Assembly: GCF_001027285.1 (NCBI RefSeq)
Contig: NZ_CP011509.1
Location: 8,394,501-8,458,500 of the forward strand
DNA: 64,000 bases
Direction of reading: 5' to 3'
From: Archangium gephyra
Lineage (GTDB): Bacteria; Myxococcota; Myxococcia; Myxococcales; Myxococcaceae
In this document: in pieces, positions 38,481-59,700 of the stretch
How the letters are laid out: each line of letters starts with the position of its first letter
How positions within the stretch are numbered: position 1 is the stretch's first letter
The notes under the pieces: model-generated
What the model saw: the letters and a program-made list of their open reading frames with translations, nothing else
What the model was told of the DNA's origin: nothing
Database searches by the model: none
Program-made: the position numbers and the translations under genes

Positions 38481-38498
38481 AGTGCGGCCAAGTTCCTC

Positions 38499-41394: not shown

Positions 41395-41454
41395 ACAGGG
41401 CGCCCACCCAGAACCCAGGGGCCCGCCTGACGAGCCCCCGCTCCCCTCTCCGGC

Positions 41455-41480
41455 GGAATTCCCGTGACCCCTCTGGTGTC
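41455..41480 (+). promoter_or_regulatory. ECF-sigma-like promoter of response regulator copy 2
   Basis: GGAATT at 41455-41460, a 16-bp spacer and TGTC at 41477-41480 repeat the arrangement at 38455-38480, within the same 14-bp block CGGCGGAATTCCCG. A start near 41488 would sit just before the ATG at 41497. Confidence 0.5.
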
Positions 41481-41496
41481 CATTGCGTCACACCCC

Positions 41497-42012
41497 ATGA
41501 GCCAGTGCGCGAACAAGAAGCGGGTCCTCGTCATCGACGACTCCGAGGCCATCCACACGGACTTCCGCCGGATCCTCAACCCCGAGCAGCGCCGCGGCCA
41601 GGATGATCTGGATCTGCTGGAAGAGGCCCTCTTCGGCCCGGCGCCCTCCCGCCTCACGGCTTCCGAGGAGACGGAGTTCGAGGTGGACTCGGCCTTCCAG
41701 GGACAGGAAGGCGTGGCCAAGGTGCGCGAGGCCCTGACGTCGGGCCGCCCCTACGAGCTGGTGTTCCTCGACTACCGCATGCCCCCCGGCTGGAATGGCG
41801 CCGAGACGCTGCGGCGCATGCGCACGGTGGCCCCCGCGCTGCGCGTGGTGCTCTGCTCGGCCTACTCCGACTACTCCTGGGGAGAGCTGCTCCAGGAGTT
41901 CAGTGACTTGCAGTTGCTGAAGGAGTTGCGAAAGCCATTCAATGGCCAGGAGGTGAGACAGCTGGCGCTCACCCTCACCACGCCGCCGGACGGTACTCCC
42001 GCAGCTACTTGA
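41497..42012 (+). CDS. Single-domain response regulator with acidic insert, copy 2
   Basis: A 171-residue tandem paralogue of the preceding regulator, with the same insert and phospho-Asp motif VFLDYRMPPGWNGAE, and Lys in ELRKPFNGQE. DNA identity is very high in the insert and strand-3 regions, so duplication is recent or kept uniform by gene conversion. The ATG at 41497 is chosen by alignment with copy 1. The last 8 bp overlap the end of the convergent PKS gene. Confidence 0.88.
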   Translation: MSQCANKKRVLVIDDSEAIHTDFRRILNPEQRRGQDDLDLLEEALFGPAPSRLTASEETEFEVDSAFQGQEGVAKVREALTSGRPYELVFLDYRMPPGWNGAETLRRMRTVAPALRVVLCSAYSDYSWGELLQEFSDLQLLKELRKPFNGQEVRQLALTLTTPPDGTPAAT

Positions 42013-44230
42013 GCCAGTAGCGCTCGCGCTGGAAGGGATAGGTGGGCAGGGCCACCCGGCGCCGCGCATACGGCGCATCGAAGGCCGCCCAGTCCACCTC
42101 CACGCCCTTCACGTACAGCTCGCCGAGCTGCTTCGACAGCCGCGGCCACTCCGCTTCTCCCGGGTTCAAGAGGAGCGTCTCGGTGCCCTCCAGCGCGCCC
42201 GCTTCCGTCCGTCCCCGAGGCTCCTGGCCCACCGCCCGCCGCAGGCCCTCCTCCAGGCCGAGCACTCCCGAGTCCACCGCCGCCACGTATTCGCCCACGC
42301 CCTGCCCCACGGACCTTCGCGGCACCACGCCCCAGGCCCGCCACATCCGCGCCAGGGCCCACTCCAGCGCGAACACCGCGGCCCCGCCGTAGGCCGGCTC
42401 CTTCAGCCGCGTGGAGTCCGGGCCGTACAGCACCTGCACCAGCGGCTTCTCCAGCACGCCCACGAGGGCCGCCGCGCACTGCTCCAGCGCCTCGCGGAAG
42501 ACGGGCTGTGACGCGTACAGCTCCCGGCCCATGCCACCAGGCCACGTGCCTTCGGCTCCAAAGACGAACGCCACCCTGGGCGCTACCGTCACCGGGCCTC
42601 GCGCCTCCGCCGCCAGGAGCCGCTCTCGCACCTGGGAGGCGTCACGGCCCACCACCGCCAGCCGGTGCTCGAAGTGCGCACGGCCCGCCGCCGCCGTGAA
42701 ACACACGTCGCCCAGCGCCTCGCGGCCCTCCTCCAGTACCCGCGCGTAACGGCCCACCTGCGCTCGCAGCGCCTCCTCGCTCCGCGCCGACAGCACCAGC
42801 ACGTGCTCCGGCCGCTCCACCTCCCGCTTCACCTCCGGCCTTGGCGGTGCCTCCTCCAGCACCACGTGCGCCAGCGTCCCCGTCCTCCCGTACGACGTCA
42901 CCCCCGCGAGGCGCCGGCCCTGCGTCGGCTCCCACGCCGTCAGCTCCACCGGCACCTTCACGCCCATGGACGCCCAGTCGATGTGCGGGTTGGGGTTCTT
43001 CAGGTGCAGGTGCGCCGGGAGCTGCCGGTGCCGCATGGCCAGCACCACCTTCATCATCCCCACCACTCCCGAGGCCGCCTCCGGATAGCCCAGGTTCGTC
43101 TTCACCGAGCCCAGCCACAGCGACTCCCCTCCCTGGCGCCCCTCCTTCAGCACCGCCCACATCGCCTCGGCTTCGATGGGGTCTCCCATCGCCGTGCCCG
43201 TGCCGTGCGCCTCCAGGTAGCTCACCTCGGCGGGCCTCACTCCCGCGGTCTCCAGCGCCTGGCGGATGACGGACTGCTGCGCCACGCCATTGGGCACCGT
43301 GAACGAGCTGCTCGGGCCGTCATGCCCCACCGCCGAGCCCCGGATGACGGCGAGGATGTTGGCGCCCCTCGCCTTCGCATCCGACAGCCGCTCCAGCACC
43401 AGCACCCCACAGGCCTCGGCGCGGCTGTACCCGTCCGCGGACGCATCGAAGGTCTTGCACCGCCCGTCCGGCGCCAGCGCCCCACTGCACGAGAGGTAGA
43501 CGCTCGCCTCCGGCGACAGGAGGAGGTTCACCCCCGCCGCCAACGCCATCGTGCACTCGCCATTCCTCAGGCTCTGGCAGGCCAGGTGCACCCCCACCAG
43601 CGACGAGGCACACGCCGTGTCCACCACCAGGCTCGGGCCCTGGAAGCCGAACAGGTACGACAGCCTCCCGGAGATGGCGCAGTTGGCCCGCGCGCCGATG
43701 AAGTACGGATCGATCGCCTCCAGTCCACCCTGGTCGAGCGCGAGCTGCCCGTAGTCGTTGTTCATCGCCCCCACGAACACGCCCACCCGATCCCTCCGGG
43801 TGCGATCCACCGCGTGCCCGGCCCGCTCCAGCGCCTCCCAGGCCACCTCCAGCACCAGCCGCTGCTGCGGATCCATGCTCTCCGCTTCCCGCCGCGAGAT
43901 GCCGAAGAAGCGCGCGTCGAACCGGTCCACGTCCCTCAGGAAGCCACCCCGCTTCGTGCGGATCTTCCCCTTCGCCCGCGGGTCCGGGTCATAGAGGGCG
44001 TTGGCGTCCCAGCGGCCCGGTGGAAGCTCGCTGGTGGCGTCCACCCCCTTCGCCATCAGCTCCCAGAAGTCGTCGGGGCCCTCCACGCCTCCCGGCAGCC
44101 GGCACGCCATTCCCACGATGGCGATGGGCTCACGGCGCGCGGCCTCGGCCTGCTCCAGCCGCGCCTCCAGCTTGCGGATCTTCACCAGCTGCTGCTGCAA
44201 CAACTGGCGGTAGTTGATCTCCTCGGACAT
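42005..44230 (-). CDS. Terminal PKS protein: ketosynthase lacking a catalytic His, plus degenerate acyltransferase
   Basis: The 741-residue third protein of the PKS starts with a docking coiled coil (residues 1-35) and a full ketosynthase. The KS keeps the active Cys in VDTACASSLVG near residue 206 and His in EAHGTGTAMGDP near 342. The second His motif reads KTNLGYPEAASG near 380 instead of N-x-GH, and the end of the domain reads GTLAH instead of GTNAH. The following acyltransferase region has GQGVGEYVAA instead of GHS-x-GE and lacks roughly 100 residues, but keeps the post-AT linker ending YPFQRERYWLK. There is no ACP or thioesterase. The ATG lies 8 bp after the previous PKS gene. Confidence 0.88.
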   Translation of the reverse strand: MSEEINYRQLLQQQLVKIRKLEARLEQAEAARREPIAIVGMACRLPGGVEGPDDFWELMAKGVDATSELPPGRWDANALYDPDPRAKGKIRTKRGGFLRDVDRFDARFFGISRREAESMDPQQRLVLEVAWEALERAGHAVDRTRRDRVGVFVGAMNNDYGQLALDQGGLEAIDPYFIGARANCAISGRLSYLFGFQGPSLVVDTACASSLVGVHLACQSLRNGECTMALAAGVNLLLSPEASVYLSCSGALAPDGRCKTFDASADGYSRAEACGVLVLERLSDAKARGANILAVIRGSAVGHDGPSSSFTVPNGVAQQSVIRQALETAGVRPAEVSYLEAHGTGTAMGDPIEAEAMWAVLKEGRQGGESLWLGSVKTNLGYPEAASGVVGMMKVVLAMRHRQLPAHLHLKNPNPHIDWASMGVKVPVELTAWEPTQGRRLAGVTSYGRTGTLAHVVLEEAPPRPEVKREVERPEHVLVLSARSEEALRAQVGRYARVLEEGREALGDVCFTAAAGRAHFEHRLAVVGRDASQVRERLLAAEARGPVTVAPRVAFVFGAEGTWPGGMGRELYASQPVFREALEQCAAALVGVLEKPLVQVLYGPDSTRLKEPAYGGAAVFALEWALARMWRAWGVVPRRSVGQGVGEYVAAVDSGVLGLEEGLRRAVGQEPRGRTEAGALEGTETLLLNPGEAEWPRLSKQLGELYVKGVEVDWAAFDAPYARRRVALPTYPFQRERYWLK

Positions 44231-44238
44231 GTCGGCCC

Positions 44239-47200
44239 TCACGAATCCTTGGCGAGATCCTCGGCCACCAGCCGCGCCAGCTCGGCGTCGGACAGGGCGT
44301 CGAGCGACTCCGCGAGTTGCCCCTCGGGCTCGGGCGCGGGGACGGGCTTCGTCTCCGGCGCCTTCGGCCGAGGCTCTTGCACCTCGAGCCTCAGCACGTT
44401 CTCCAGCAGGTGCCGCACCAGGAAGTCGATGGTGGGATGGTCCAGCGCCACCGTCGCGGGCACGGACACGCCGAGCCCCTTCTGCAGCACGTTGCGCAGC
44501 TCGATGGCCATCAGCGAGTCCATGCCCATCTCGGCGAAGCCCTGGCGCCAGTCGAGCTGCGAGGGCTCCAACCGGAGGATGCGCGCGACCTCCTCCTGGA
44601 GGCTGCTCTCCAACACCTGGACACGCTCGTGGGGCAGTGCGGCCTTGAGCCGCTCCGCGAGCGGATGGCGCGGCTGCGAGGAGGCCATCGCCGCGTTCGG
44701 CCCCGCGGTGGGACGGGCGGGTGCCACGGCCTCGTAGAAGGACGAGCGCCCCTTGGCCCCGAGCACCTCCAGGTACACCGGCCACTGGACGGACATGAGG
44801 GCCAGCTGGGGCCGGCCACTCGCGAGCGCCTCGCCGAACAGCGCGAGGGCCTGCTTCGTCGCGAGCGGACGGATGCCCCGGCGTTCGAGCGCACGCGCCA
44901 GGGTTCCATCCGGCGCGCCCACCATGCCCGTCTCCGCCCACGGGCCCCAGTCGAGGGACTGCGCCACCAGCCCGCGAGCACGCCGCTCGTGGGCGAGCGC
45001 GTCCAGGAAGGTGTTGGCCGCGGCGTAGTTGGCCTGGCCCCGAGAGCCGAGCATCGCGGAGGCCGAGGAGAAGAGGACGAAGAAGTCCAGCGGCCGGCCC
45101 TCGGTGAGCCGGTGCAGGTTCCACGCCCCCGCCACCTTGGGCGTCATCACACGCTCGAAGCGCTCGAGGTCCTGCTGCGGGAGTGCCCCATCATCCAGCA
45201 CCCCCGCCGAATGGACGATGCCGCGCAGGGGCGGCCCGTCCGTGTCGAGGCGCTGGAGCAGCCGCGCCACCTCCGCTTCGTTGGAGACATCCGCGGAGGC
45301 CACGGTGACGTGGGCTCCCGCCTGCTCGAGCGCACGCACCGCCTCGGAGGCCTGTGCCGAGGGCGCACGGCGTCCCACGAGCACCAGGTGACGCGCGCCC
45401 TGCTCCACCATCCACCGGGCCACCTCCAGGCCCAGCCCACCGAGTCCTCCCGTGACGAGGTAGGTGGCCTCCGCCCGCATGGGGAGGGAGCCGGCACGCG
45501 AGCCCGTGTCCTTGCGCAGCACCGGGTACAGGCGCACGCCACCCCGGAAGGCCACCTCGCGCTCGGGAGCGCCGCCGCCGCTACCCAGCTCGGCATACAG
45601 CAGCCGGACACTGCCCTCGAGGTCCTCGGGGTCCAGGTCCACGCGGGTGCAGCGCAGCTCCGGGGCTTCCAGGTCGATCACCCGGCCGAGCCCCCACAGC
45701 GGCGCCTGCGCGAGCGCGAGGCCCCCGCGCGTGTCCTTCACCGCCTGGGCGCCCCGGGTGACGATCCACACGGGAGGCGCCTCGTCGCGGCCCGCCAGCC
45801 CCTTCACGAGGTGCAGGGCCCCACCGCTCGCCTCCAGCGCGGCCCGCTGCACCGACTCCGCCGAGGCGTCGTCCGGGGTGCGCTGGTCCATGCCCCACAG
45901 GTACACCACGCCCGCGCAGCGGGCCGGCACGAGGGTGTCGATGGACACACGCGCGAAGCCCTCCGGACGCACGCGGAGCACGGGCGCGCCCTGCTCCTCC
46001 AGCATGCGCCCGAGCCGCTCGCCCACGCCCTGCGCATCCATCAGCAGCACCCAGGGCCGCTTGTCCGCCAGGGGGGCCGGGACGAGGGGCCGGGCTTCGG
46101 GCGAGGGCTTCCAGGAGACCTCGTAACGCGCCTCCTCCCGTCGCGCGTGCGTGCCGATCCGCACAGCCTCGCGGTTCGCCATCCGGGCCCGGAAGCCGAT
46201 CACCTCCGCCACCACCCCCTGCTCGTCGATGATGCGGAAGTCGCCCCCGATGAGCTCCCCCGCCTCGGCCCGTCCGCCGCCTTCCATGCGGGCGTGGCAC
46301 CACACCGTTCCCCGCGGCCTGCGGTAGACGGTGAAGCGCGAGACGCTGAAGGGAATGAGCATCGCGTCCGGGTAGCGGGCCTGGAGCTCCAGCGTCCAGC
46401 TCGTGAGCACCTGGAAGCACGAGTCCACGAAGCCCGGGTAGAGCGGGTAGTCCTCCAGCCTGTCCGGCAGCGAAGGCAGCCGCATCTCGCCGAGAATCTC
46501 GTCCCCCACGCGGGCCACGGAGCGGATCCACTGGTAGCCCGAGCCGAGCGTGTAGCCCTTCTCCCGCATGCCCCGGTAGATGTCCTCTCCCGAGATGCGC
46601 TCCTGGCCGCGGGCCAGCAACTCCTCGCGCGAGGTCCACGGCCTGGGCTGCTCCGCCGGGCCCACGCGCACGCCACCACTGGCGTGCAGCACCCACGTCT
46701 CCGCGCCACTGGTGTCGCCGAGCGACTTCACCTCGAACGCGTGGCCCTGCTCCTGGGGCGAGAGGATGACCTGGAGCGTGCGCTCCTCGTCCTCCGCGAG
46801 CACCAGCGCCTGGGGGAAGGCCAGGTTCTCGAGGGTGCACGCGGGTGTGCCGTACGTGTCCTCGATGACCGACAGCACCAGCGACACGTGCGAGGAGCCC
46901 GCCGCCACGATCGTCCCGTTGAGGCGATGGTCGTTGAGGTGCGCCGGACGCGAGGGCCCGTAGACCGTCTCGTACACGAGCGCATCGAGCGCCGGAGAGC
47001 GCAGCCGGCGGCCGAAGTGCGGGAGGCTCTCCGCCTCGTGCCGGGGCGCGAGGGCCGTGCGAGGCGCCGCGCTCCGCCACCAGTAGCGCTGGCGCTGGAA
47101 GGGATAGGTGGGCAGGGCCACGCGGCGCCGCTCGTAGGGAGCGTCGAAGGCCGCCCAGTCCACCGCCACGCCCTTCACGTACAGCGCGCCAAGCGTCTTC

Positions 47201-50200
47201 AACAGCCGCGGCCACTCCGCTTCGCCCGGGTGCAGGAGGAGGGCCTCCATGCCCTCGGTCGTGCCCGTCTCCGCATGCAGCCACGGCACCTTGCCCACCG
47301 CCATCCGCAGCCCTTCCTCCAGGCCGAGGACTCCGGACTCCACCGCCGCCACGTACTCGCCCACGCCCCGCGCCACCACCGCCTGGGGCACCACGCCCCA
47401 GGCCCTCCACAGGCGCGCCAGGGCCCACTCCACCGCGAACACCGCGGCCCGGCCGTACGTCTCCTGCTTCAGCAGCGCGGACTCCTCGCCGTACAGCACC
47501 CGCACCAGCGGCTTCTCCAGCACGCCCTCGAGCGCCTGCTCGCACAGCTCCAGCGCCTCGCGGAAGACGGGCTGCGTCTCGTACAGCTCCCGCCCCATGG
47601 CCATGGACGGCTCGGCTTCACCACTGAAGACGAAGGCCACCCTGGGCGAGGGGCCCACCGCGCGTCCTGGCACCACGCCCTCCACCTCGCGGCCCTGCTC
47701 CACCGCGGACAGCAGCTCGCTCATCCGCTGGGCGCTGCCTCCCACCACGGCCAGCCGGTGCTCGAAGTGCGCGCGGCCCACCGCCGCCGTGAAGCACACG
47801 TCTCCCAGCTCCCCACCGCCCTCCTCCAGCACCTGGGCGTAGCGGCCCGCCTGGGCCCGCAGGGCCTCCGCGCTCCGCGCCGACAGCACCAGCACGTGCT
47901 CCGGCCGCTCCACCTCCCGCGTCCGCACGGGCCCCGGCGGCGCCTCCTCCAGCACCACGTGGGCGTTCGTCCCGCTGAAGCCGAAGGAGCTCACCCCCGC
48001 GATGCGCCGGCCCTGCGTCGGCTCCCACGCCGTCAGCTCCACCGGCACCTTCACGCCCATGGACTTCCAGTCGATGTGCGGGTTCGGCTTCTTCAGGTGC
48101 AGGTGCGCCGGAAGCTGCCGGTGCTGCATGGACAGCACCACCTTCATGATGCCCGTCACGCCCGCCGCGGACTCCAGGTGGCCCAGGTTCGTCTTCACCG
48201 AGCCCATCCACAGCGACTCCCCGCCCTGGCGTCCCTCCTTCAGCACCGACCACATCGCCTCCGCCTCGATGGGGTCTCCCAGCGACGTGCCCGTGCCGTG
48301 CGCCTCCAGGTAGCTCACCTCGGAGGGCTTCACGCCCGCGCTCCCCAGCGCCTGACGGATGACGGCCTGCTGCGCCAGTCCGTTGGGCACCGTGAGGCCG
48401 CTGCTCGCTCCGTCCTGGTTCACCGCCGTGCCGCGGATGACCGCGAGGATGTTGTCCCCCTGTGCCCGCGCCTCCGACAGCCGCTTGAGCACCAGCACGC
48501 CCGCGCCCTCGGCCCGCGCGAAGCCATTCGCCGAGGCGTCGAACGTCTTGCACCGCCCGTCCGCCGCGAGCATCCGCGCCCTGCACACCGCCATCATCGG
48601 CTCGGGCGAGAGGATGAGGTTCACCCCCGCCGCCAGCGCCATCGTGGACTCGCCGGTGCGCAGGCTCTGGCAGGCCAGGTGCAGCGCCGTCAGCGAGGAC
48701 GAGCACGCCGTGTCCACCGCCATGCACGGGCCCTGAAGGCCGAGCGTGTACGACAGGCGCCCCGCCACCACGTTCAGCGAGGTGCCCGAGGCGTACCACG
48801 CGTCCACGTCCTCCGGCGCGCCCTGGAGGATGACGCGCGAGTAGTCCGCCGTGGTGATGCCCACGAAGACGCCCGTGCGCGTGTTGCGCAGCGCGCTCGC
48901 GTCCTGGCCGGCCCGCTCCAGCGCCTCCCAGGCCACCTCCAGCACCAGCCGCTGCTGCGGATCCATGCTCTCCGCCTCACGCGGAGAGATGCCGAAGAAC
49001 TGCGGCTCGAAGCGGTCCACCTCGCGCAGGAAGCCGCCGGAGCGCACGTACATCTTCCCCGGCGCTTCCGGGTCCGCGTCGTACCAGGCGTCCACGTCCC
49101 AGCGGTCCGCCGGAATCTCCGAGATGGCATCCGTGCCCTCGCGCAGCAGCCGCCAGAAGGCCTCGGGCGTGTCCGCTCCGCCCGGCAGCCGGCACGCCAT
49201 GCCGACGATGGCGATGGGCTCATCCGAGGCGGCTGGGACATGGACCTCGGGCGTGGCGGCGCGGGGCGCCTCCGACTCGAGCAGCGAGGAGAGATGCTCC
49301 GTGAGCGCCTTCACGGTGGGGAAGTTGAACGCCAGGGTCGCCGGCAGCGGGACGCTCAGCGCCTTCTGCAGCCGCTCCTTCACCTCCACCGCCATGATGG
49401 AGTCCAGCCCCATCTCGTTGAAGCCGCGCTCGTCCTCCACGGACTGGCCGGGTTGCAGGCCGAGGATGCGCGACACGGACTCCTGCACCAGCTTGCGCAG
49501 CGCCTCGCGCCGGGCGGTGGCCGTGGGGGCCTCGCGCCAGGGTGCCGGGGCGGAGCTCTTCACCACCGGAAGCTCCTTCGGCCCGGCGGCCAGCTCGGTG
49601 CGCAGCCGCGACAGCAGGGGCCGGGGGCCTCGGGCCTCGAAGATGGGCAGGAAGCGCTCCCAGCGGATGGTGGCCACCATCGCCTGGGGCACGCGCGAGC
49701 CCACGAGCCGCTCCATCCAGCCCAGCGCGGCCTGCCGGTCGAGTACCTCCACGCCCATGTTCATCAGCCAGCGGCCCTGCTCCTCGGAGGCGGCACCCCG
49801 GCCGCTCCACAGGCCCCAGTTGATGCTGGTGGCCGCGAGCCCCAGCGCATGCCGGTGCGCCGCGAGCCCATCCAGGAAGCTGTTGGCCGCGGAGTAGTGC
49901 CCCACGCCCGAGGAGCCCCACACCGCCGAGATGGACGAGAAGAGGATGAAGAAGTCCAGCGGCTCGTCCCGCGTGAGCGTGTGCAGGTTCCAGGCGCCGG
50001 CCACCTTCGGAGCCAGCACCCGCTCGAGCGTGTCCGCGTCCAGGTCCCGCACCCGCGACGTCGAGGACACCACCGCCGCGTGGACGATGCCGCGCAGTGG
50101 GGGCATGGACGCACGCATCCGCTCGAGCAGGGCCGCCATGTCCTCGCGAAGCGCCACGTCCGCCTGGGCCAGCAGCACCTTCGCGCCCGCCTCCTCCAGC

Positions 50201-53200
50201 TCGCGGACACCGGTGATGCGCTCGGCCAGCTCGCCGCCCTGGGCCAGGGCCGCGTCCCACTGCGAGCGCTCGGGCATGGCCCGGCGCGCGGTGAGCACGA
50301 GATGACGGGCACCCCGGCGCACCAGCCAGCGCGCCACCTCGAGCCCGAGCGCCCCCTGCCCTCCCGCGATGAGGTACGTGGCCTCGGCCTGGACGGGCAC
50401 GGGCTTGGACTCCGGAGACTCACGCTCCACCAGCCGCGCCACGTACCGCTGGCCGCCCCGCAGCACCATCTGGTCCTCGTCCCGCGCCGAGCGCAGCTCC
50501 TCCCAGAGTTGCCGCGCGCCGTCCTCGGGGCCCAGGTCGATCAACCCGCCCCAGCGGCCCGGGCTCTCCAGCGCCACGCTCCGCCCGAGTCCCCACAACG
50601 TCGCCTGCGCGGGCTCCACCTTCTCCACGCCCGAGCCCACCGACTGGGTGCTCCGGGTCACCACCCACAGCCGGCCACCGGGCTCCGGTGAGCCCTCCAC
50701 GACGCGCAGCATGGAGGCCACGCTGACGCAGGACTCGCGGATGCCCGGGCCTTCCACGCTCGTGACGTCCAGGGCTCCCAGGTACACCACCCCCGCGCAG
50801 GGCGAGCTCGCGGAGAAGCGCTCGCGCCACACCCGCTCCAGGGCCGTGGCATCCCCCGCGTCCACCTTCACGCAGGCGCCGCCCTGGGCCTCGATGCTTG
50901 AGGCGAGCTGCTCGCCCACCCCGCCGCGATCGCACAGCAGCAGCCAGGTGCCACTCGCCGGTGCGGGAGCGGACGCCGGGCGCGGCGCGGACTGCCACTC
51001 CAGCGCGTACAGATCGCCCCGCGTTCCGTCCGGTGCTTCCGTGGCGGAGTCCTGGTCCGGCGCGGGCTGTGCGGACTTCGCGGCGGGGGACGCCTCCGGA
51101 ATGGCCCAGTACCGCTGGCGCTGCCAGGGGTAGCGCGGCAACACCACCTTGCGGCGCGCGGGCTCGGGGTCCACCTTGCTCCAGTCCACCGCCTGGCCCC
51201 GGACGAACAAGCGCCCCAGGACGCCCAGCACCTGCTCCACGTCGTCCTTGCCCTTGCGCAGCGAGGGGAGCCACTCGGGCCCCTCGCCCAGGCACGCCTT
51301 GCCGAGCCCGAGCAGCGTGGTGTGCGGGCCCACCTCCACGTAGGTGTCGATGTCCAGGCCGCGCAGCGACTCCATGCCCTCCTGGAAGCGCACGGCCTCG
51401 CGGGCATGTCGGCGCCAGTAGCCCGGAGCGCCCAGCTCGTTGGGGCCCACCGGCCGGCCCGTGACGTTGGAGATGAGCGGCAGCTTCCCGGGAGCGCGCG
51501 CCATCCGGGACGCCCTCGCCTCCAGCGCCTCCAGCATGGGCTCCACCAGCGGCGAGTGGAAGGCATGCGAGACGTTGAGCTTGCGCGTCGCGATGCCCTG
51601 GGCCTCGAGCGCCGAGGTGACGCGCTCCACGGCCTCGGCCGCGCCGGACAGGGAGAGCTGGCCCGGTCCGTTGTACGCGGCGATGGACACGCGGTCCTGG
51701 TACGGCGCGAGCACCGGCGCCACCTGGGCCTCGGTGGCGAACACCATGGCCATGACACCGCCCGGAGGCAGGGCCTGCATGAGCCTGCCGCGCTCGGCGA
51801 TGAGGTCCAGCGCGTCCTCCATGGAGAGGATGCCGGCCACGCACGCGGCGGCGAACTCGCCCACGCTGTGTCCCATCACCGCGTCCGGCACCACGCCCCA
51901 CGAGCGCCACAGCTCCGCCAGCGCGTACTGCAGGGCGAACAGGGCCGGCTGGCTGTAGCCCGTCTGGTCGATGGGAGACGGCGCGCCGTCCCGCGGGTAC
52001 ATCACGGACAGCAGGTCCATCCTCGGCTTCAGCCGCGCGGCGCACCGGTCCAGCGCGTCGCGGAAGACGTCCGAGGTGTCGTAGAGCCGCCGGCCCATGC
52101 CGGCGAACTGCGAGCCCTGGCCGGTGAAGAGGAAGGCCACCCGGGGCGGGTTGTTGCCCGCCCTGCCCTGGGCCACCTGCTCCGGCTTCATGTCCGAGGC
52201 GAAGGCGGACAGGCTCGCGGCCAGGGCCTGCGGGGAGCCTCCCACCACGGCCAGCCGGTGCGGCAGGCGCGCGCGGGTGGTGTTGAGGGTGAAGCACACG
52301 TCCGCCGCGTCCAGCTCCGGGTGGGCGGTGAGGTGCTCGGCCTGACGGCGCGCCAGGGCCACCAGCGCCTCTTCCTTGCGAGCCGAGAGCGTCAGCAGGT
52401 GCGTGGGGCGTGGGGCGGGCGTGCGCGTGGGGGCGGCCGGGGGAGGCGCCTCCTCCAGGATGATGTGCGCGTTGGTGCCGCTCATGCCGAACGCACTCAC
52501 GCCGGCCAGCCGGGGCACCGCCGAGCGCTTCCACGGCTGGAGCTCGGTGGGGACGTAGAAGGGCGTGCCCTCCAGCCGGATGCGCGGGTTGAGGCGGCTG
52601 AAGTTGAGGTGTTTGGGGATGGCCTCGTGCTGAAGCGCCAGCACCGTCTTCATGAGGCCGGCGATGCCCGCCGCGGCCTCCAGGTGGCCCATGTTCGTCT
52701 TCACCGAGCCGAGCGCGCACCGCGAGCCATCCGGCCTCGGCCTGCCCAGCACGTCCACGAGCGCCTCGACCTCGATCGGGTCTCCGAGCGGCGTGCCGGT
52801 CCCATGCGCCTCGATGTAGCCGAGGGCGGAGGGGTCCACCTTCGCGCTCGCCAGCGCCTGCCGCAGCAGGGCCTGCTGGGCGAGCATGTTGGGCGCGGTG
52901 AGTCCCTGCGAGCGTCCATCCTGGTTGACGGCCGAGCCGCGGATGACGGCGAGGATGGTGTCGCCCTGGGCCTGCGCGTCCGACAGCCGCTTGAGCACGA
53001 CGAGGCCGCAGCCCTCGCCGCGCACGAAGCCATTGGCGCGGGCGTCGAAGGCACTGCACCGGCCGTTGGGAGAGAGCGCCTGCATGCGCAGGAGCGTCTC
53101 CGTGACGGACGGGTCCAACACGAGGTTCACACCGCCCGCGAGCGCCACGGAGCACTCATTGGCGCGCAGGCTCTGGCAGGCCAGGTGGATGGCCACCAGC

Positions 53201-53799
53201 GAGGACGAGCACGCCGTGTCCACCGCGAGGCTGGGCCCCTGCAACCCGAGCGTGTACGAGACGCGCCCGGGTGGGAAGCAGTGGCCGTTGCCGGTGCCGT
53301 AGTAGGCGTCGATGCGCTCGGGCTCGGTGGGCAGCAGCCGGTAGTAGTCATCCCCGGTGAGCCCCACGAAGACGCCGGTGGCCGTCTGCGCCAGCCGCTC
53401 CGGGTCCTGCCCCGCGTGCTCCAGCGCCTCCCAGGCCACCTCCAGCAGCAGGCGCTGGCGCGGGTCCATGCTGGTGGCCTCGCGCGGGGAGATGCCGAAG
53501 AAGGCCGCGTCGAAACCGCTCACGTCCTCCAGGTAGCCGGCCCAACGCGGCGCACTCGCGTCCGAGCCCACACGGCGTGAAGCGGGCTCGCGGCGGACGG
53601 CATCCCGCCCGGCCGCCAGCAGCTCCCAGTACGACTCTGGCGTGTCCGCTCCGCCGGGGAAGCGGCACCCCATCCCGATGATGGCGATGGGTTCGGTGCG
53701 GGCCCGCTCGAGCGAGTCGATACGGGCCTGCATCTTCTGCATCGCCATCACCGCACGAGCCAGGCGCTGCTTGAGCTCGTCCTTCACGTCCTCACTCAC
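44239..53799 (-). CDS. Type I PKS, two modules: KS-AT-KR-ACP and KS-AT(degenerate)-DH-KR-ACP
   Basis: The 3,186-residue protein opens with a docking coiled coil. Module A: KS with VDTACSSSLVA near 196 and NMGHLEAAAG; an intact AT with GHSVGE near 643 and HAFH near 743, pointing to malonyl-CoA; KR with GGQGALG near 1147 and Tyr near 1302; ACP Ser in MGLDSIM near 1467. Module B: intact KS (Cys near 1697, NLGHLESAAG); AT remnant with ARGVGEYVAA near 2144 in place of GHS-x-GE and an internal deletion; DH with HRLNGTIVAAG near 2290 (last Pro replaced by Gly) and Asp in GFVDSCFQ; KR with GGLGGLG near 2785 and the B-type VLDDG; ACP Ser in MGMDSLM near 3093. The GTG start overlaps the upstream stop. 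Confidence 0.93.
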   Translation of the reverse strand: MSEDVKDELKQRLARAVMAMQKMQARIDSLERARTEPIAIIGMGCRFPGGADTPESYWELLAAGRDAVRREPASRRVGSDASAPRWAGYLEDVSGFDAAFFGISPREATSMDPRQRLLLEVAWEALEHAGQDPERLAQTATGVFVGLTGDDYYRLLPTEPERIDAYYGTGNGHCFPPGRVSYTLGLQGPSLAVDTACSSSLVAIHLACQSLRANECSVALAGGVNLVLDPSVTETLLRMQALSPNGRCSAFDARANGFVRGEGCGLVVLKRLSDAQAQGDTILAVIRGSAVNQDGRSQGLTAPNMLAQQALLRQALASAKVDPSALGYIEAHGTGTPLGDPIEVEALVDVLGRPRPDGSRCALGSVKTNMGHLEAAAGIAGLMKTVLALQHEAIPKHLNFSRLNPRIRLEGTPFYVPTELQPWKRSAVPRLAGVSAFGMSGTNAHIILEEAPPPAAPTRTPAPRPTHLLTLSARKEEALVALARRQAEHLTAHPELDAADVCFTLNTTRARLPHRLAVVGGSPQALAASLSAFASDMKPEQVAQGRAGNNPPRVAFLFTGQGSQFAGMGRRLYDTSDVFRDALDRCAARLKPRMDLLSVMYPRDGAPSPIDQTGYSQPALFALQYALAELWRSWGVVPDAVMGHSVGEFAAACVAGILSMEDALDLIAERGRLMQALPPGGVMAMVFATEAQVAPVLAPYQDRVSIAAYNGPGQLSLSGAAEAVERVTSALEAQGIATRKLNVSHAFHSPLVEPMLEALEARASRMARAPGKLPLISNVTGRPVGPNELGAPGYWRRHAREAVRFQEGMESLRGLDIDTYVEVGPHTTLLGLGKACLGEGPEWLPSLRKGKDDVEQVLGVLGRLFVRGQAVDWSKVDPEPARRKVVLPRYPWQRQRYWAIPEASPAAKSAQPAPDQDSATEAPDGTRGDLYALEWQSAPRPASAPAPASGTWLLLCDRGGVGEQLASSIEAQGGACVKVDAGDATALERVWRERFSASSPCAGVVYLGALDVTSVEGPGIRESCVSVASMLRVVEGSPEPGGRLWVVTRSTQSVGSGVEKVEPAQATLWGLGRSVALESPGRWGGLIDLGPEDGARQLWEELRSARDEDQMVLRGGQRYVARLVERESPESKPVPVQAEATYLIAGGQGALGLEVARWLVRRGARHLVLTARRAMPERSQWDAALAQGGELAERITGVRELEEAGAKVLLAQADVALREDMAALLERMRASMPPLRGIVHAAVVSSTSRVRDLDADTLERVLAPKVAGAWNLHTLTRDEPLDFFILFSSISAVWGSSGVGHYSAANSFLDGLAAHRHALGLAATSINWGLWSGRGAASEEQGRWLMNMGVEVLDRQAALGWMERLVGSRVPQAMVATIRWERFLPIFEARGPRPLLSRLRTELAAGPKELPVVKSSAPAPWREAPTATARREALRKLVQESVSRILGLQPGQSVEDERGFNEMGLDSIMAVEVKERLQKALSVPLPATLAFNFPTVKALTEHLSSLLESEAPRAATPEVHVPAASDEPIAIVGMACRLPGGADTPEAFWRLLREGTDAISEIPADRWDVDAWYDADPEAPGKMYVRSGGFLREVDRFEPQFFGISPREAESMDPQQRLVLEVAWEALERAGQDASALRNTRTGVFVGITTADYSRVILQGAPEDVDAWYASGTSLNVVAGRLSYTLGLQGPCMAVDTACSSSLTALHLACQSLRTGESTMALAAGVNLILSPEPMMAVCRARMLAADGRCKTFDASANGFARAEGAGVLVLKRLSEARAQGDNILAVIRGTAVNQDGASSGLTVPNGLAQQAVIRQALGSAGVKPSEVSYLEAHGTGTSLGDPIEAEAMWSVLKEGRQGGESLWMGSVKTNLGHLESAAGVTGIMKVVLSMQHRQLPAHLHLKKPNPHIDWKSMGVKVPVELTAWEPTQGRRIAGVSSFGFSGTNAHVVLEEAPPGPVRTREVERPEHVLVLSARSAEALRAQAGRYAQVLEEGGGELGDVCFTAAVGRAHFEHRLAVVGGSAQRMSELLSAVEQGREVEGVVPGRAVGPSPRVAFVFSGEAEPSMAMGRELYETQPVFREALELCEQALEGVLEKPLVRVLYGEESALLKQETYGRAAVFAVEWALARLWRAWGVVPQAVVARGVGEYVAAVESGVLGLEEGLRMAVGKVPWLHAETGTTEGMEALLLHPGEAEWPRLLKTLGALYVKGVAVDWAAFDAPYERRRVALPTYPFQRQRYWWRSAAPRTALAPRHEAESLPHFGRRLRSPALDALVYETVYGPSRPAHLNDHRLNGTIVAAGSSHVSLVLSVIEDTYGTPACTLENLAFPQALVLAEDEERTLQVILSPQEQGHAFEVKSLGDTSGAETWVLHASGGVRVGPAEQPRPWTSREELLARGQERISGEDIYRGMREKGYTLGSGYQWIRSVARVGDEILGEMRLPSLPDRLEDYPLYPGFVDSCFQVLTSWTLELQARYPDAMLIPFSVSRFTVYRRPRGTVWCHARMEGGGRAEAGELIGGDFRIIDEQGVVAEVIGFRARMANREAVRIGTHARREEARYEVSWKPSPEARPLVPAPLADKRPWVLLMDAQGVGERLGRMLEEQGAPVLRVRPEGFARVSIDTLVPARCAGVVYLWGMDQRTPDDASAESVQRAALEASGGALHLVKGLAGRDEAPPVWIVTRGAQAVKDTRGGLALAQAPLWGLGRVIDLEAPELRCTRVDLDPEDLEGSVRLLYAELGSGGGAPEREVAFRGGVRLYPVLRKDTGSRAGSLPMRAEATYLVTGGLGGLGLEVARWMVEQGARHLVLVGRRAPSAQASEAVRALEQAGAHVTVASADVSNEAEVARLLQRLDTDGPPLRGIVHSAGVLDDGALPQQDLERFERVMTPKVAGAWNLHRLTEGRPLDFFVLFSSASAMLGSRGQANYAAANTFLDALAHERRARGLVAQSLDWGPWAETGMVGAPDGTLARALERRGIRPLATKQALALFGEALASGRPQLALMSVQWPVYLEVLGAKGRSSFYEAVAPARPTAGPNAAMASSQPRHPLAERLKAALPHERVQVLESSLQEEVARILRLEPSQLDWRQGFAEMGMDSLMAIELRNVLQKGLGVSVPATVALDHPTIDFLVRHLLENVLRLEVQEPRPKAPETKPVPAPEPEGQLAESLDALSDAELARLVAEDLAKDS

Positions 53800-56700
53800 T
53801 GCTTGTCCTCCCAGCCCGCCAGCACGTCATCCACCATCTCGAGCAACTTCCCTTCCGACAGCTCCGCGAGCTGGTGGGCCTCCGGCTCCGCCGTGGCGGG
53901 AGACCGGTTCATGAGGATGGGCTGCTCCGCCGGGGCGGCGGGAGCCGGTGAATCGGACGACTGCCTGGGGGTGAGCCCCAGCTGCTCCAGCAGGTACACC
54001 GCCAGCGCCGCCAGGGTGGAGTGCGCCCACAGCAGCGTCACCGACAGCTTCAGCTCCAGCGTGGCCTCGATGCGGTTGCGCAGCTCCAGGCTCATCAGCG
54101 AGTCGAGCCCCAGGCCGCGGAACGGCTCGTGCCGTCCCACGCGCGACGGATCGATCCGCAGCACCTGGGCGAGCCGCTCGCGCAGGTAGCTCTCCATCTT
54201 GCCCGTCCGCTCGCTCGCGTTGGCCCGCCGCAGCTCCAGCAGCAGGGCGGAGCGGCCGCGCTGGCCCTCGCCATGGCGCTCCGCGGCCAGCTCCTCCCAG
54301 ATGCGCAGCGACGCCGCGCTCGGGAAGAACTCCAGCCACTGGCGCACGTCGAGCGACACCGCGCCCACGTGCACCGCGCCCTCCTGCAGCAGGCGCTCGA
54401 GCATCATCTCGCCCTGGCGCGGGGTGAAGCTGGCCATGCCCTGGTGCGCCAGCCGCTCGCCGCGGTTGGAGTGCGCGGCGGCCAGACCCACCTCGGAGAA
54501 GGGACCCCAGTTCACGCTCAGCGCCGGCAGGCCCTGCTGGCGCCGGTAGTGGGCCAGCGCATCCATGGCCGCGTTGGCCGCCGCGTAGTTGCCCTGGCCC
54601 GGCAGTCCCAACAGCGCGGACATGGACGAGTAGAGGACGAAGAAGTCCAGCGGCTCGTCGCGGGTGAGCATGTGCAGGTTCCACGCGCCCTGGATCTTCG
54701 GAGCCATGACGGTGCGGAAGCGCGCCGGCTCCTGCTGCTCCAGGGTGCCGTCATCGAGCACGCCCGCGCAGTGCAGCACGCCGCGCAGCTGGGGCAGGTC
54801 CCCCCGCGTACGCGCCACCACCTCGGACAGGCGCCGGGCGTCCGCCACGTCCGCCTTCGCCACCTCGATGCGCGCCCCCTGGGCCCGCAGCGTCTCCAGC
54901 TCCTTCTGGACGGCCTCGGAGGGAGTGCTCCGGCCGGTGAGCAGCAGATTCCGCGCGCCATGCCCCACCAGCCAGCGGGCCGCCTCCAGGCCCAGGCCAC
55001 CCAGGCCACCGGTGATGAGGTACGTCGCGTCCTCGCGCACCCGGAAGCCCGAGCGCGGCGGCACCACGCGCAGGTGTGGATCATCCATGGTGACGACGAG
55101 CTTGCCCACGTGCTGGCCCTGCGCCATCTCGCGGAAGGCCTCGGAGGCCTGCGACACGGGGAAGGCGCGGTGGCGCACGGGCTTGAGCGTGCCCGAGGCC
55201 ATCTGCTCCACCACCTCGTGCAGCAGCCGCGAGCACAGCGCCGGGCGCTGCTCCCTCAGGCCCACCAGATCGATGGCCGCGTAGATGAGCCGGCGGCTGA
55301 ACTGCGACAAGTCCAGCGCGCGTCCGGCGTGGATGTCGCGGTTGCCCACCTCCAGGAAGCGGCCATCCGGAGCCAGCACCTCCATGCTCCGGGTGATGGC
55401 ATCACCGGAGAGGGAGTTGAGCACCGCGTCCACGCCCTCGCCCTTCGTGAGGCGCATCACCTCGTCGGCGAAGGCCAGCGTGCGCGAGTCCATCACGTGG
55501 GGAATGCCCATCGAGCGCAGCAGCTCGCGCTTCTCCGGCGTGCCGGCGGTGGCGAACACCTCCACCCCCATGGACTGGGCGATCTGCACCGCCGCCAGGC
55601 CGAGTCCGCCCGCGGCGGAGTGGATGAGGACGCGCTCGCCCTTCTGCAGCCGGGCCAGGTGGTGCAGCGCGTACCAGGCCGTCATGAAGACGCTGGGGAT
55701 GGAGCTGGCCTCGACCGCGCTCATCCCGGCGGGACGGCGCACGGCGAAGCGCGCATCCGTGACGACGTGCGAGGCCATGGCCGAGGGCGCGAAGGCCACC
55801 ACCTCGTCTCCAGCCTCGAGGTTCGTCACCCCCTCGCCCACCGCCACCACGCGGCCGGCGCAGTCGAGCCCCAGCGGCAGGCCCTCCAGCGGAACGCCGG
55901 GGGCACCGCCCTTGCCCTTCATCACGTAGAGGCCCATGGTCTTCATCACGTCGATGAAGTTGAGGGCCGAGGCCTCGACGGCGATTTCCACCTCGCCCGG
56001 GCCGGGCTTGCGCCGCTCGGACATGCGCACGGACACGCCGCCGAAGGAGCCCGCCGGGGGCGTCTCCACCTGGAAGGGACGGCCCGCCACGGGCAGCAGC
56101 GGCTCCATGAACAGCTCCTTCGCACCCGAGCGCCGGACGAGCCGCGCCACGAAGCGCGCCCCCGCCCGCAGGGCCACCTGCTCATCCTCCGCGCGCGCGG
56201 CCAGCTCGCGGCCCAGGGCTTCCACGTCCACCAGGGGCGAGGAGGAATCCAGGTCCACGCACGTGCAGCGCAGCTCCGGGTGCTCGTGTCCCACGGCGCG
56301 TCCCAGGCCCCAGAGAGCGGCCTGGAGCGCCCCCGTCACGGGCGAGCCCAGCACGGGGTAGGCACCCCGCGTCACCAGCCACAGGCGCGGAGGATCCCTC
56401 CACCCGAGCCGCAGCACCTCCTGGACGATGCGCAGCGCGCCGCCGCAGGCCCTCACGGCCTCGTCGATGGCCTTCTCGCCCGGCATGTCCGGGGCCGGCA
56501 TGTCCAGGCCCCACAGGTACGCCACGCCCGCGCAGGCGCCGCCGGACGGCAGGCACTGCTGCAACATGGCGCGCATCTCCTCGCGCGAGCCGGGCGTCAC
56601 CGCGAAGTGCCGGGCCCCCAGCTTGCGCAGGCCCGAGCCCGCCTCCACGCGGATGCAGGCCCCGCCCCAGGACTCCAGCATGTCCGCGAGCGAGGCGCCC

Positions 56701-59700
56701 ACGCCGGAAGCGTCCTGGAAGATGAGCCAGGGCGACTCGTCCGAGCCGGGCTCGAACACCGCGGGCAGACCCACCCGGCGCCAGGCCAGCTCGAAGAGCG
56801 AGCGGTCCTGCTCGGAGCGGGCGCGGCCGTAGCGCGTGGGCAGCGCGGAGAGCTCCAGGCCCTCCACCTCGGCGAGCGGGACGCCCTGCCCGTCGAGCAG
56901 GACGACGTCGCCCTCGAGGGGCATGCCCTTGCGCCAGGACTCCGGCGGAGGCAGGCGCGCATGGGCCCACCTGGGCGTGCCCTTGCGCAGCACCTCGAAG
57001 CGGCGCAGGCGGACGGGGACGTAGGTGGTGTCACCGGCGGGCAGCGCCTCCAGCAGCACCTGCAGCGCCGCGTCGAGCACCGCGGGGTGCAGCTCGCCCT
57101 GCTGCACGAGCGACTCGGGCGGGGAGATGCGGCCCACGGCCTCGCCGTCCTGACGCCACACCTCCTTGAGTCCGCGGAAGGTGGGGCCGTACTGGAGCCC
57201 GCGCTGCTCCATGTCCAGGTAGTGCACCTCGGTGAGGCGGACCTCGGAGCACCGCCGTTGGACGTCCTCCACCTTCACCGCGGGCAGCGCGCCGCGTGCG
57301 TTGGAGTCCGACGCGCGCACGCGCCCCTGGGCGTGTACCGTCCACATCTCCGCGCTGCTGCCGCCCGGCGTGGGGATGAAGCTGGACACCTTGAAGGAGA
57401 TGGCGCCCGTGGAGCCCACGTCCACCAGCAGCTCGGCCCGGCGCGTGCCGTCCCCGAGCAGCGCCAGCGCCTCGTGGATGCGCACGTCCTCGAGCGTCCA
57501 CGGCCCGGGGCCGAGCGCCGACTGCACCGCCGTGGACACCCAGTCCAGGTACGCCGTGGTGGGGAGGATGATGGTGCCCTGCACCCGGTGGTCCGCCAGC
57601 CAGGGCAGGTTGCGCGCGCCCACCTCCACGTCCCAGAAGAAGGCCCCGGGACGCAGCGACGAGCGGCGCACCGGCCCCAGCAGCGACTGGTTGCGCTCCT
57701 CGCGGGACAGCTTGGGGGCGGGGTTCGCGCCCGGCTGGAACCAGCAGTCCTGGCGCTGCCAGGGGTAGTCGGGCAGCCGCACCAGCCGGCCCCCTTCCGG
57801 GTGCAGCGCCTTCCACTCCACCTCGCGGCCGGCCGCGTAGAGGCCGCCGAGCGTCTCCAACATCACCTCGCGCTCGGGCTGCTCGCGCCGCACGGACGGC
57901 AGCACGGTGGCCTCCATGCGCAGGTGGGCGATGGTCTGCTCGATGGCGGGCAGCAGCACCGGGTGCGGGCTGATCTCCACGAAGAGCGAGTGCCCGTCCT
58001 GGGCGAGCCGCTCCACCACGGGGGCCAGCAGCACGGGCTCGCGCAGGTTGCGCACCCAGTAGGCCGGCTCCAGGTCCGCGCCGTCCGTCACCTCGCCCGT
58101 CACGGTGGAGAAGAGCGACACCTCGCCACGCCGGGGCGCCAGGCCCTCCAGCGCGCGCAGCAGATCCTCTCGCAGCGGCTCCATCTGCGGGCTGTGCGAG
58201 GCCACGTCCACCTTCACCCGGCGGCAGAAGACGTTGCGCGCCTCCAGCTTCTCCAGCACCTGGGCGAGCGCGTGCGGCTCGCCGGAGAGCACGGTGGAGC
58301 GGGGGCTGTTGCTGGCCGCCACGGACAGCCAGTCCTCCAGGCCGCGGATGGCCATGCGGGCCTCGTCCAGGGTCAGCTCCACCATGGCCATGCCGCCCTG
58401 GCCGCTCACCCGGCGCAGCAGCAGGCTGCGGCGGCAGATGATGCGGGCCGCGTCCACCAGATCCAGGGCGCCGGCCACGTGCGCCGCGGCCACCTCGCCC
58501 ATGCTGTGGCCCACCACCATGTCGGGCACCACGCCCCAGGCGCGCCACAGCCGCGCCAGCGCCACCTGGATGGAGAAGAGCGCGGGTTGGACCTGATCGA
58601 TGCGCTCCATCCACGCCCCGTTGTCCGAGGCCAGCAGCTCCATGAGCGACCAGTCCACGAAGCGGCGCAGCGCGGCGTCGCACTGCTCGAGCGCCGAGCG
58701 GAACACGGGCTCCTCGGCCATGAGCCGGCGTCCCATGCCGAGCCATTGCGAGCCCTGGCCGGGGAAGACGAACACCACGGGCTGGTGCCGGCCATCCGCG
58801 TGGCGGGTAACGGAGAGCCCCGGGCGGACCTCGCCGCGCAGGAAGCCCGCCAGGCCGTCACGGGCCTCGGCGGGGGTGTGGGCCAGCAGGGCCATCCGGT
58901 AGTTGAGGTGGCTGCGGGAGACGGACGCCGAGTAGCAGACGTCCCGCAGCGACAGGGGATGCGACTCCAGGCGGGCGACGACCCTGCGGGCGGCCTCCGC
59001 GAGCGCCTCGGGCGTCTGCGCGGACAGGGGCAGCAGGTGCGTGCGGCCCGGAGGCAGGGCGGGCGGCTTGTCGGAGGGCAGCACGGCCACCGGCGTCTCC
59101 GGCGGCGGCAGCGCCTCCCAGCGCACCTGGACGCCCCGCACATGCAGCGCGCCGAGCGCCTCCAGCAGGGAGGCCCGTGCCTCGTCGCGGCGCAGCGAGC
59201 CCACCACCAGGCCCGTGCGTCCGGCCTTGCGCAGCAGCTGCTCCACGGGGCGGCACAGCACCGGGTGCGGGCTGAGCTCCACGAAGGAGTCGACGCCCTC
59301 GGCCACCAGCCGCTCCACGGCCTGGGCGAAGCGGACCGGCTGGCGCATGGTGCGGCAGCGCGCGTCTCCCATGCGGCCGTCCGCCCCCACCTCGCGCGCC
59401 ACGGTGGACACCCAGCGCACGCCCTCCTTGCGCTCCCACAGCTTCTCCTGGGCCGCCTCCAGCTCGTCGCGCAGCGGCTCCCACTGGCGCAGGCGGCTGG
59501 CGCGGTACACCTTCCACACCGCGTCCGCGGCCTCCATGCCTCCGGCGATGCACGCCGCGGCCACCTCGCCCACGCCGTGGCCCACCACCACCTCGGGCTC
59601 CACGCCCCAGGCGCGCCACAGCGCCGCCAGCCCCACCTGCACCGCCAGCGTCAGCGGCTCGGCGGCGTCCTCGTCCGACAGCACCCGCGCGTGTGGATCC

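What the first reader, a model, noticed from the sequence alone, without database searches (positions are those of the whole stretch)
42005..44230. Terminal PKS protein is a KS0-AT0 without ACP or thioesterase
The KS has Tyr where the condensation His should be (NLGY for NLGH) and GTLAH for GTNAH, and the protein stops right after the post-AT linker. KS domains without this His are known as non-elongating KS0 in trans-AT systems, where they pass chains on. Here nothing follows. The protein may hold the acyl chain for release to an external partner, act as a gatekeeper or thiolysis site, or be a decaying duplicate.
Basis: partly seen in the sequence, partly recalled or inferred. Interest (0 to 1): 0.7.

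Follow-up and report, generated by a model that had tools for sequence, protein, structure and literature searches.

The report
Conserved chain-releasing ketosynthase end-piece
The last protein of a small soil-bacterium polyketide assembly line has lost the parts needed to build the chain further but keeps a specially rewired active site, so it is probably not a decaying leftover but an end-piece that takes the finished chain off the line.

Summary
PKS-C (42005-44230, minus strand, 741 aa) is docking helix-KS-linker-truncated AT and stops at the post-AT linker, with no ACP or thioesterase. It is not a chance truncation or a pseudogene. Ten of ten held genomes of two genera (6 + 4) carry it as the last gene of the same three-gene operon. 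All ten end 2-11 residues after the linker's last conserved Trp, though their downstream DNA differs. All ten keep Cys207, His342 (HGTGT) and Lys377 and replace the NxGH His with Tyr382. The gate loop is rebuilt in all ten (Tyr447, Arg449, Leu/Val453). An exact Tyr-motif pattern hits these 10 genomes, once each, and none of the other 185 phylum genomes searched. The KS is under purifying selection (median dN/dS 0.20 and 0.15), while the dead AT drifts (0.49 and 0.37). It is not the usual trans-AT KS0, which loses the HGTGT His. The nearest working analogue is CalA3, an ACP-less terminal PKS module whose KS releases the chain. Most likely PKS-C is a dedicated off-loading KS: it docks on PKS-B, takes the chain on Cys207 and lets water or the chain's own hydroxyl remove it. 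The reaction is untested.

The parts
42005..44230 (-). PKS-C: docking helix - KS (Cys-His-Tyr) - KS-AT linker - truncated AT0 - post-AT linker, 741 aa
   Evidence: ORF and translation; Pfam; orthologues in 10 of 10 held genomes of two genera, window included
44132..44230 (-). N-terminal docking helix, aa 1-33, lowest dN/dS of the segments measured (median 0.056 in g1, 0.018 in g6)
   Evidence: helix 2-32 in the model; the CurL match reaches into it
42851..44131 (-). KS domain, aa 34-460
   Evidence: Pfam; whole-protein model mean pLDDT 87.5, pTM 0.90; Z 58.7 to CurL 4mz0 over 721 aligned, rmsd 2.7
43610..43612 (-). Cys207, KS nucleophile, kept in 10 of 10
43205..43207 (-). His342 of HGTGT, kept in 10 of 10
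43100..43102 (-). Lys377, kept in 10 of 10
   Evidence: position
43085..43087 (-). Tyr382 in place of the NxGH His; Tyr in 10 of 10 PKS-C, His in 43 of 43 other KS rows
42872..42898 (-). rebuilt gate loop (loop 1), aa 445-453 TSYGRTGTL instead of SSFGxSGTN: Thr445, Tyr447, Arg449, Thr450, Leu/Val453
   Evidence: loop roles from PMC7138838 (passages); register is my reading
42587..42850 (-). KS-AT linker domain, aa 461-548
   Evidence: Pfam PF22621 and PF16197; model
42161..42586 (-). AT0 remnant, aa 549-690: Gly at the Ser position in 10 of 10, C-terminal part of AT largely missing in the window protein
   Evidence: Pfam match 2-115 of 319; alignment
42008..42160 (-). post-AT linker, aa 691-741, where the protein ends
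44239..53799 (-). PKS-B, 3186 aa: KS-AT-KR-ACP-KS-AT0-DH-KR-ACP plus C-terminal segment that looks like a docking partner (by eye); thought to deliver the chain to PKS-C
   Evidence: B-C gap 8-10 nt in 10 of 10 genomes
53796..61547 (-). PKS-A, 2583 aa: KS-AT0-AT-DH-ER-KR-ACP; overlaps PKS-B by 4 bases

Best explanation
PKS-C is the dedicated chain-releasing subunit of the three-protein assembly line A-B-C. Its N-terminal helix docks on the C-terminal end of PKS-B, and the last ACP of B passes the finished acyl chain to Cys207 of the KS (inferred; helix and Cys conserved). The module is not expected to elongate: it has no ACP, its AT is dead, and the His that takes part in decarboxylative condensation is Tyr (letters shown, consequence inferred). 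The AT piece survives only as a scaffold remnant. Instead the rebuilt pocket (Tyr382, Tyr447, Arg449, Leu/Val453, with His342 and Lys377 kept) lets a nucleophile take the chain off Cys207. With no conserved partner gene seen beside the operon, the likeliest nucleophile is water (free acid) or a hydroxyl of the chain itself (lactone) rather than a dedicated acceptor (inferred). It arose once, from an elongating KS-AT module, before the two genera split (inferred from the tree; transfer between them is not excluded).
For: Present in 10 of 10 held genomes of genera g1 (6) and g6 (4), 71-91% identity to the window protein. All ten end 2-11 residues after the last conserved Trp of the linker although downstream genes differ: in g1 convergent genes like the window's response regulators (the window's tested by Pfam, the others by resemblance); in g6 others, among them an SDR (G034) and a SnoaL-like plus AMP-ligase pair (G031). 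Cys207, His342 and Lys377 invariant; Tyr382, Tyr447, Arg449 and Thr450 invariant and 453 Leu (8) or Val (2), against 43 other KS rows with His (43/43), Phe (43/43) and Asn (42/43) at 382, 447 and 453. 10 of 195 phylum genomes match the Tyr pattern, one copy each. KS dN/dS median 0.203 (15 g1 pairs) and 0.146 (6 g6 pairs), below PKS-B KS1 (0.251, 0.166) and KS2 (0.305, 0.255); in the same protein AT0 is 0.488 and 0.368 and the docking helix 0.056 and 0.018. Internal control: the dead AT motif varies (H to Q/R/E/P) while the KS residues do not. The ten form one group (100/100) on a stem of 0.33 changes per site. Intact predicted fold. No further ACP and no TE match in the window, and no ACP-like motif in the 1.2-7.2 kb held downstream in 10 of 10. 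Precedent: CalA3, an ACP-less terminal PKS module with Gly for the AT Ser, releases the chain by KS-catalysed amidation or hydrolysis (PMC10006239: abstract, sections 4 and 10, part 1 of 2 of section 9, and passages).
Against: No biochemistry: Cys207 acylation and the released product are not shown. CalA3 keeps Cys-His-His, and its H372A mutant lost amidation; its C197A mutant also showed increased hydrolysis (4.46-fold), so the higher hydrolysis in H372A (4.15-fold) is no clean proof of a KS hydrolase. The NxGH His is thought to help Cys acylation (recalled), so its loss could weaken loading. In the seven closest pairs the KS0 dN/dS (0.133) is slightly above KS1 (0.094) and KS2 (0.124) of PKS-B, and AT0 (0.198) is little above the working AT (0.159). 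The related g19 cluster shows no TE in its last protein's tail or the next gene, so release without TE may not need a PKS-C of this kind. ACPs and TEs elsewhere in the genome exist and cannot be excluded as partners.
Confidence: 0.55

Rival explanations
1. Transacylase to an external acceptor: PKS-C holds the chain and passes it to a discrete carrier protein, CoA, or an amine or alcohol acceptor encoded elsewhere.
For: KS0 domains in other lines act as transacylases between ACPs (PMC8456789, PMC7619045; passages), some of them at the end of a protein with the ACP on the next one (split bimodules); CalA3 uses a separate amine, 3-HAA. Arg449 sits where CalA3 residue 439 would touch the acceptor if the +10 register holds (inference).
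Against: No conserved partner gene seen beside the operon (downstream looked at in 10 of 10, and gene calls; upstream in 7 of 10, window). The upstream SCP2-CaiB pair looks like core metabolism: CaiB in 89 of 96 family genomes, next to SCP2 also in 5 of 5 g7 loci looked at, with no KS motif in their 4.1 kb.
Confidence: 0.17
2. Non-catalytic cap or gatekeeper: PKS-C dimerises and occupies the docking end of PKS-B, blocking wrong partners or holding the chain, while release is by a distant hydrolase or spontaneous.
For: The docking helix has the lowest dN/dS; the AT is dead; [quoted passage not shown]
Against: A cap would not need Cys207, His342 and Lys377, all invariant in 10 of 10, while AT motif letters vary in the same protein.
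Confidence: 0.14
3. Still a condensing KS: the Tyr tolerates decarboxylative condensation and a carrier protein works in trans.
For: HGTGT His and Lys kept; module B2 also lacks a working AT, so sharing of domains probably occurs in this line.
Against: No ACP for this module in the window or, by motif, in the downstream DNA held for the ten operons; His is invariant in 43 of 43 other KS rows.
Confidence: 0.06
4. Decaying duplicate of the PKS-B second module.
For: 70% identity to that module's KS-AT0 in the same genome over 28-740; AT truncated; end overlaps the neighbouring gene by 8 bp.
Against: Ten orthologues without internal stops, purifying selection on the KS, specific invariant changes, one old origin.
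Confidence: 0.04

Closest known systems
CalA3 (calcimycin PKS, Streptomyces chartreusis; PMC10006239)
   Same: Chain-release PKS protein with docking domain, KS and inactive AT (Gly for Ser), no ACP; the KS carries the catalytic function and releases the chain of the preceding protein's ACP.
   Different: CalA3 keeps Cys-His-His and carries inactive DH and KR domains as a structural lid; PKS-C is Cys-His-Tyr with a truncated AT and nothing after it. PKS-C is closer in sequence to CurL (718 bits) than to the chains that I take to be CalA3 (8i4y, 7wvz; about 418 bits; that they are CalA3 is recalled), so it looks like an independent invention.
BonD terminal [KS] (bongkrekic acid; PMC12560621, passages)
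   Same: Atypical KS at the end of a line without TE, proposed by its authors to take part in off-loading.
   Different: Ser-Ala-His instead of Cys-His-His, last domain of a module in a trans-AT line; here Cys-His-Tyr, a separate protein, a line with its own ATs.
Non-elongating KS0 of trans-AT PKS (e.g. HtmA1 KS3, PMC8456789; MmpE KS0, PMC7619045; passages)
   Same: Takes a chain from an upstream ACP on a retained Cys without elongating it.
   Different: HtmA1 KS3 has Cys-Asn-His (first His lost; MmpE's triad was not looked up), and both pass the chain to an ACP of the same or next protein.
CurL KS-AT (4mz0) and the g19 relatives' last module
   Same: Same fold with docking helix; among the three alignments shown, CurL gives the best single matching stretch (662 bits; the top total score, 7zma, sums several stretches); g19 C' shares the docking helix and follows PKS-B'.
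   Different: g19 C' has the NxGH His; it seems to have a working AT and to continue with a methyltransferase and an ACP (across an assembly break).

Membership tests
Non-elongating KS0 of trans-AT PKS | Active-site Cys kept | tested here: met
   Cys207 in 10 of 10
Non-elongating KS0 of trans-AT PKS | First His (HGTGT) substituted, second His kept (pattern in the papers seen) | tested here: not met
   HGTGT His kept in 10 of 10; NxGH His is Tyr in 10 of 10
Non-elongating KS0 of trans-AT PKS | ACP on the same or the next protein receives the chain | tested here: not met
   Protein ends at the post-AT linker; no carrier match follows in the window; no motif in downstream DNA held for ten operons
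CalA3-type ACP-less release module | Last PKS protein, docking domain, no ACP | tested here: met
CalA3-type ACP-less release module | AT inactive by loss of catalytic Ser | tested here: met
   Gly at the Ser position in 10 of 10
CalA3-type ACP-less release module | KS with Cys-His-His | tested here: not met
   Cys-His-Tyr
CalA3-type ACP-less release module | Inactive DH and KR lid | tested here: not met
   Nothing follows the AT linker
CalA3-type ACP-less release module | KS releases the chain in vitro | not testable with these tools
   needs enzyme assay
BonD-type terminal [KS] | Ser-Ala-His triad | tested here: not met
   triad from PMC12560621
KSQ loading KS | Gln in place of the active-site Cys (recalled) | tested here: not met
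   Cys207 present
Pseudogene | Stops, frameshifts or relaxed selection in homologues | tested here: not met
   10 full-length open frames, KS dN/dS medians 0.15-0.20

The most novel reading that the evidence does not exclude
A new kind of release catalyst: a Cys-His-Tyr ketosynthase, evolved once from an elongating cis-AT module and independently of CalA3, that off-loads a 5-hydroxy-2-enoyl chain by intramolecular O-acylation as an unsaturated delta-lactone, replacing the thioesterase. The chain shape is inferred from the order A (reducing), B1 (KR only), B2 (DH-KR).
Probability: 0.15. Interest if true: 0.78.

Novelty: new variant of a known kind. Interest (0 to 1): 0.58.

Why it matters
How modular PKS lines without thioesterases let go of their products is largely open; KS-mediated release is shown for CalA3 and only proposed in the other cases I read of. 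A 741-aa protein with a natural His-to-Tyr swap, a rebuilt gate loop and nine orthologues is a small, testable system for how a condensing enzyme becomes a releasing one. It also warns against discarding ACP-less terminal KS-AT proteins as broken modules.

Tried and rejected
Pseudogene or local truncation by the convergent response-regulator gene: rejected, since the same end is found in ten genomes with different neighbours. SCP2-CaiB as part of the cluster: rejected as probable core genes (CaiB in 89 of 96 genomes at E up to 1e-120; next to SCP2 with no KS motif in 5 of 5 g7 loci looked at, out of 12 loci fetched). Trans-AT KS0: rejected by the His pattern. The first AlphaFold job with ten close orthologues failed (mean pLDDT 45.5); the second with 53 rows gave 87.5. 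The one genome-contig scan gave only two loci, both named Archangium. The plasmid tblastn gave only matches under 60% identity (1276 records). CalA3 does not appear by name in the 50 rows; that is no evidence against likeness. Rows 1 and 2 there (7uwr, a KSQ-AT, Z 59.8, rmsd 3.4, 680 aligned; CurL, Z 58.7) differ by 1.1, so the order means little. A paper search for KSX/ACPX gave nothing; the search for SalC brought no SalC paper, only NaPDoS2 and a review in the listing, so monensin KSX and salinosporamide SalC remain recalled analogues, not used as evidence. A search that included 'histidine to tyrosine' listed 10 of 122 papers, none with that phrase. Ten searches in an open-access library do not prove that Cys-His-Tyr KS are undescribed.

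Limits: one search listed matches at E of 1e-180 or better and scored at most 11 candidates per genome; one search covers 195 phylum genomes and one exact degenerate pattern only; one search used 53 of the 59 KS stretches found (six cut short by a locus end dropped), and the 43 comparison rows are related to one another, not independent. The dN/dS pairs are not independent either; for the PKS-B AT0 in g6 only 2 of 6 pairs could be measured. The tree is rooted at the midpoint and the branching inside the 25-row group is open, so whether PKS-C came from the PKS-B module or from a g19-like C' is not resolved. The CalA3 register (+10) is checked by Cys197, His332, Lys367 and His372 only.
Full report
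What is there. The window lies in a 12,489,432-base single-contig genome. Three PKS genes run on the minus strand. PKS-A (53796-61547) is KS-AT0-AT-DH-ER-KR-ACP. PKS-B (44239-53799) is KS-AT-KR-ACP-KS-AT0-DH-KR-ACP. PKS-C (42005-44230) is docking helix-KS-truncated AT. A and B overlap by 4 bases and B and C are 8 bases apart. PKS-C's 3' end overlaps that of a convergent response-regulator gene by 8 bases.

The finding is right at the letter level. The KS has KTNLGY and GTLAH, the AT has GQGVGE and matches only positions 2-115 of the 319-position AT model, and the protein ends at the post-AT linker. No carrier-protein match (PF00550) beyond the three of A and B, and no thioesterase match (PF00975), lies in the window at E up to 0.01.

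It is old and conserved. In the search of 96 family genomes the ten best matches are one per genome: six of six g1 genomes and four of four g6 genomes, the window included. All have the order A-B-C on one strand, with B-C gaps of 8-10 nt. All ten proteins (741-784 aa) end in the same linker, 2-11 residues after its last conserved Trp. Downstream differs: in g1 convergent genes like the window's response regulators; in g6 other genes, including an SDR in G034 and a SnoaL-like gene plus an AMP-ligase in G031. So the end point is inherited, not made by the local neighbour.

The active site is rewired, not ruined. In ten of ten, Cys207, His342 and Lys377 stay; Tyr382 replaces His (His in 43 of 43 other KS rows), Tyr447 replaces Phe (43 of 43), Leu or Val453 replaces Asn (42 of 43), and Arg449 takes the place of a residue that is Phe, Met, Leu, Ala, Trp or Gly in the others. 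In FabF, loop 1 (GFGG, with Phe400 as gate and flanked by Asn404, which is tied to Asp265 of loop 2) opens and closes the pocket, and the Phe400 amide makes part of the oxyanion hole (PMC7138838, passages). By my reading of the register, Arg449 is at the gate Phe and Leu453 at Asn404, while the Asp (Asp304) stays. Gly302 and Phe310, near or in loop 2, are also clade-specific. The rows are the 53, out of 59 found.

Selection. In g1 (15 pairs) median dN/dS is 0.056 for the docking helix, 0.203 for the KS and 0.488 for the AT0; PKS-B KS1 has 0.251, KS2 0.305, its working AT 0.280 and its own AT0 0.670. In g6 (6 pairs) the figures are 0.018, 0.146 and 0.368, against 0.166 and 0.255 for the two KS and 0.224 for the working AT. 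In the seven closest pairs KS0 is 0.133 against 0.094 and 0.124, and AT0 0.198 against 0.159 for the working AT, so the contrast is weaker there. A KS kept about as tightly as its condensing neighbours, beside an AT whose motif varies, points to a catalytic role for the KS and a scaffold role at most for the AT.

Origin. In a tree of 59 KS stretches the ten Tyr forms are one group (100/100) on a stem of 0.33 changes per site, inside a group of 25 (100/99) with PKS-B second-module KS, one fragment of G080 and the g19 relatives (midpoint root, inner order open). In g19 (G057, G058) a related cluster has an NRPS gene upstream, and its C' shares the docking helix but has NLGH and GTNAH; a 513-aa tail with methyltransferase and carrier domains appears to belong to C' (across an assembly break). 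So a working module most likely came first.

Rarity. The Tyr pattern hits 10 of 195 phylum genomes, one each, with no hit for the reversed control. The same pattern with His hits 57 of 96 family genomes, 318 times by my sum.

Structure. With 53 rows AlphaFold gives mean pLDDT 87.5 and pTM 0.90, an intact KS plus linker plus AT remnant (lowest confidence at 673-676); CurL KS-AT aligns at Z 58.7, 721 residues, rmsd 2.7. A shared fold shows no function.

How it works (inferred). The conserved docking helix and the docking-like C-terminus of PKS-B (by eye) suggest that the last B ACP delivers the chain to Cys207. Without ACP, AT or the second His, condensation is unlikely. CalA3 shows that an ACP-less terminal module can release the chain by its KS, by amidation or hydrolysis (PMC10006239: abstract, sections 4 and 10, part 1 of 2 of section 9, other passages). 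PKS-C differs in the triad and lacks CalA3's DH-KR lid. As no conserved partner gene was seen, water or the chain's own hydroxyl is the likeliest nucleophile. The caveat is that CalA3's C197A mutant also hydrolysed more, so that assay does not prove a KS hydrolase.

Known kinds. In the passages seen, KS0 domains have an altered first His or HGTGT motif (PMC8456789, PMC8302727, PMC5772238). BonD's terminal [KS] is Ser-Ala-His and is proposed for off-loading (PMC12560621, passages). Terminal KS0 of some algae are proposed for release or transfer (PMC4661987, passages). PKS-C works like CalA3 in my reading but fails its triad and lid features, so it is filed as a new variant. A survey lists T1PKS among the conserved unknown clusters of Archangium (PMC12766979, passages); whether it is this one is not known.

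Noticed in passing
window 47200-47643 (PKS-B second module AT0): PKS-B module 2 also has a dead, truncated AT (ARGVGEY), and in the four g6 genomes most of it is gone, so its ACP is probably loaded by another AT: an AT-less module inside a line with its own ATs.
   Followed up: partly
window about 59058-59846 (PKS-A first AT): PKS-A has two ATs in a row; the first has GHGVGE (Ser to Gly), the second GHSMGE and a VASH motif (recalled as methylmalonyl-type).
   Followed up: partly
L050, L059, L049 (G057) and L048, L051, L088 (G058): Related NRPS-PKS cluster in genus g19 with an active last module apparently ending in methyltransferase-ACP and no thioesterase in that tail; contigs break in the KS-AT repeats.
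   Followed up: partly
window 40882-42012: Two adjacent, similar response-regulator genes behind a HAMP/HATPase kinase gene (38385-40694); the second overlaps the 3' end of PKS-C by 8 bases convergently.
   Followed up: no
window 61838-63451: SCP2 and family III CoA-transferase genes upstream of PKS-A; the CoA-transferase is found in 89 of 96 family genomes, so it looks like core metabolism rather than part of the cluster.
   Followed up: partly
window 44239-53799 (PKS-B DH): The PKS-B DH reads DHRLNGTIVAAGSSH, with Ala where the usual HxxxGxxxxP motif (recalled) has Pro; the g19 relative has Pro. Its activity is uncertain.
   Followed up: no
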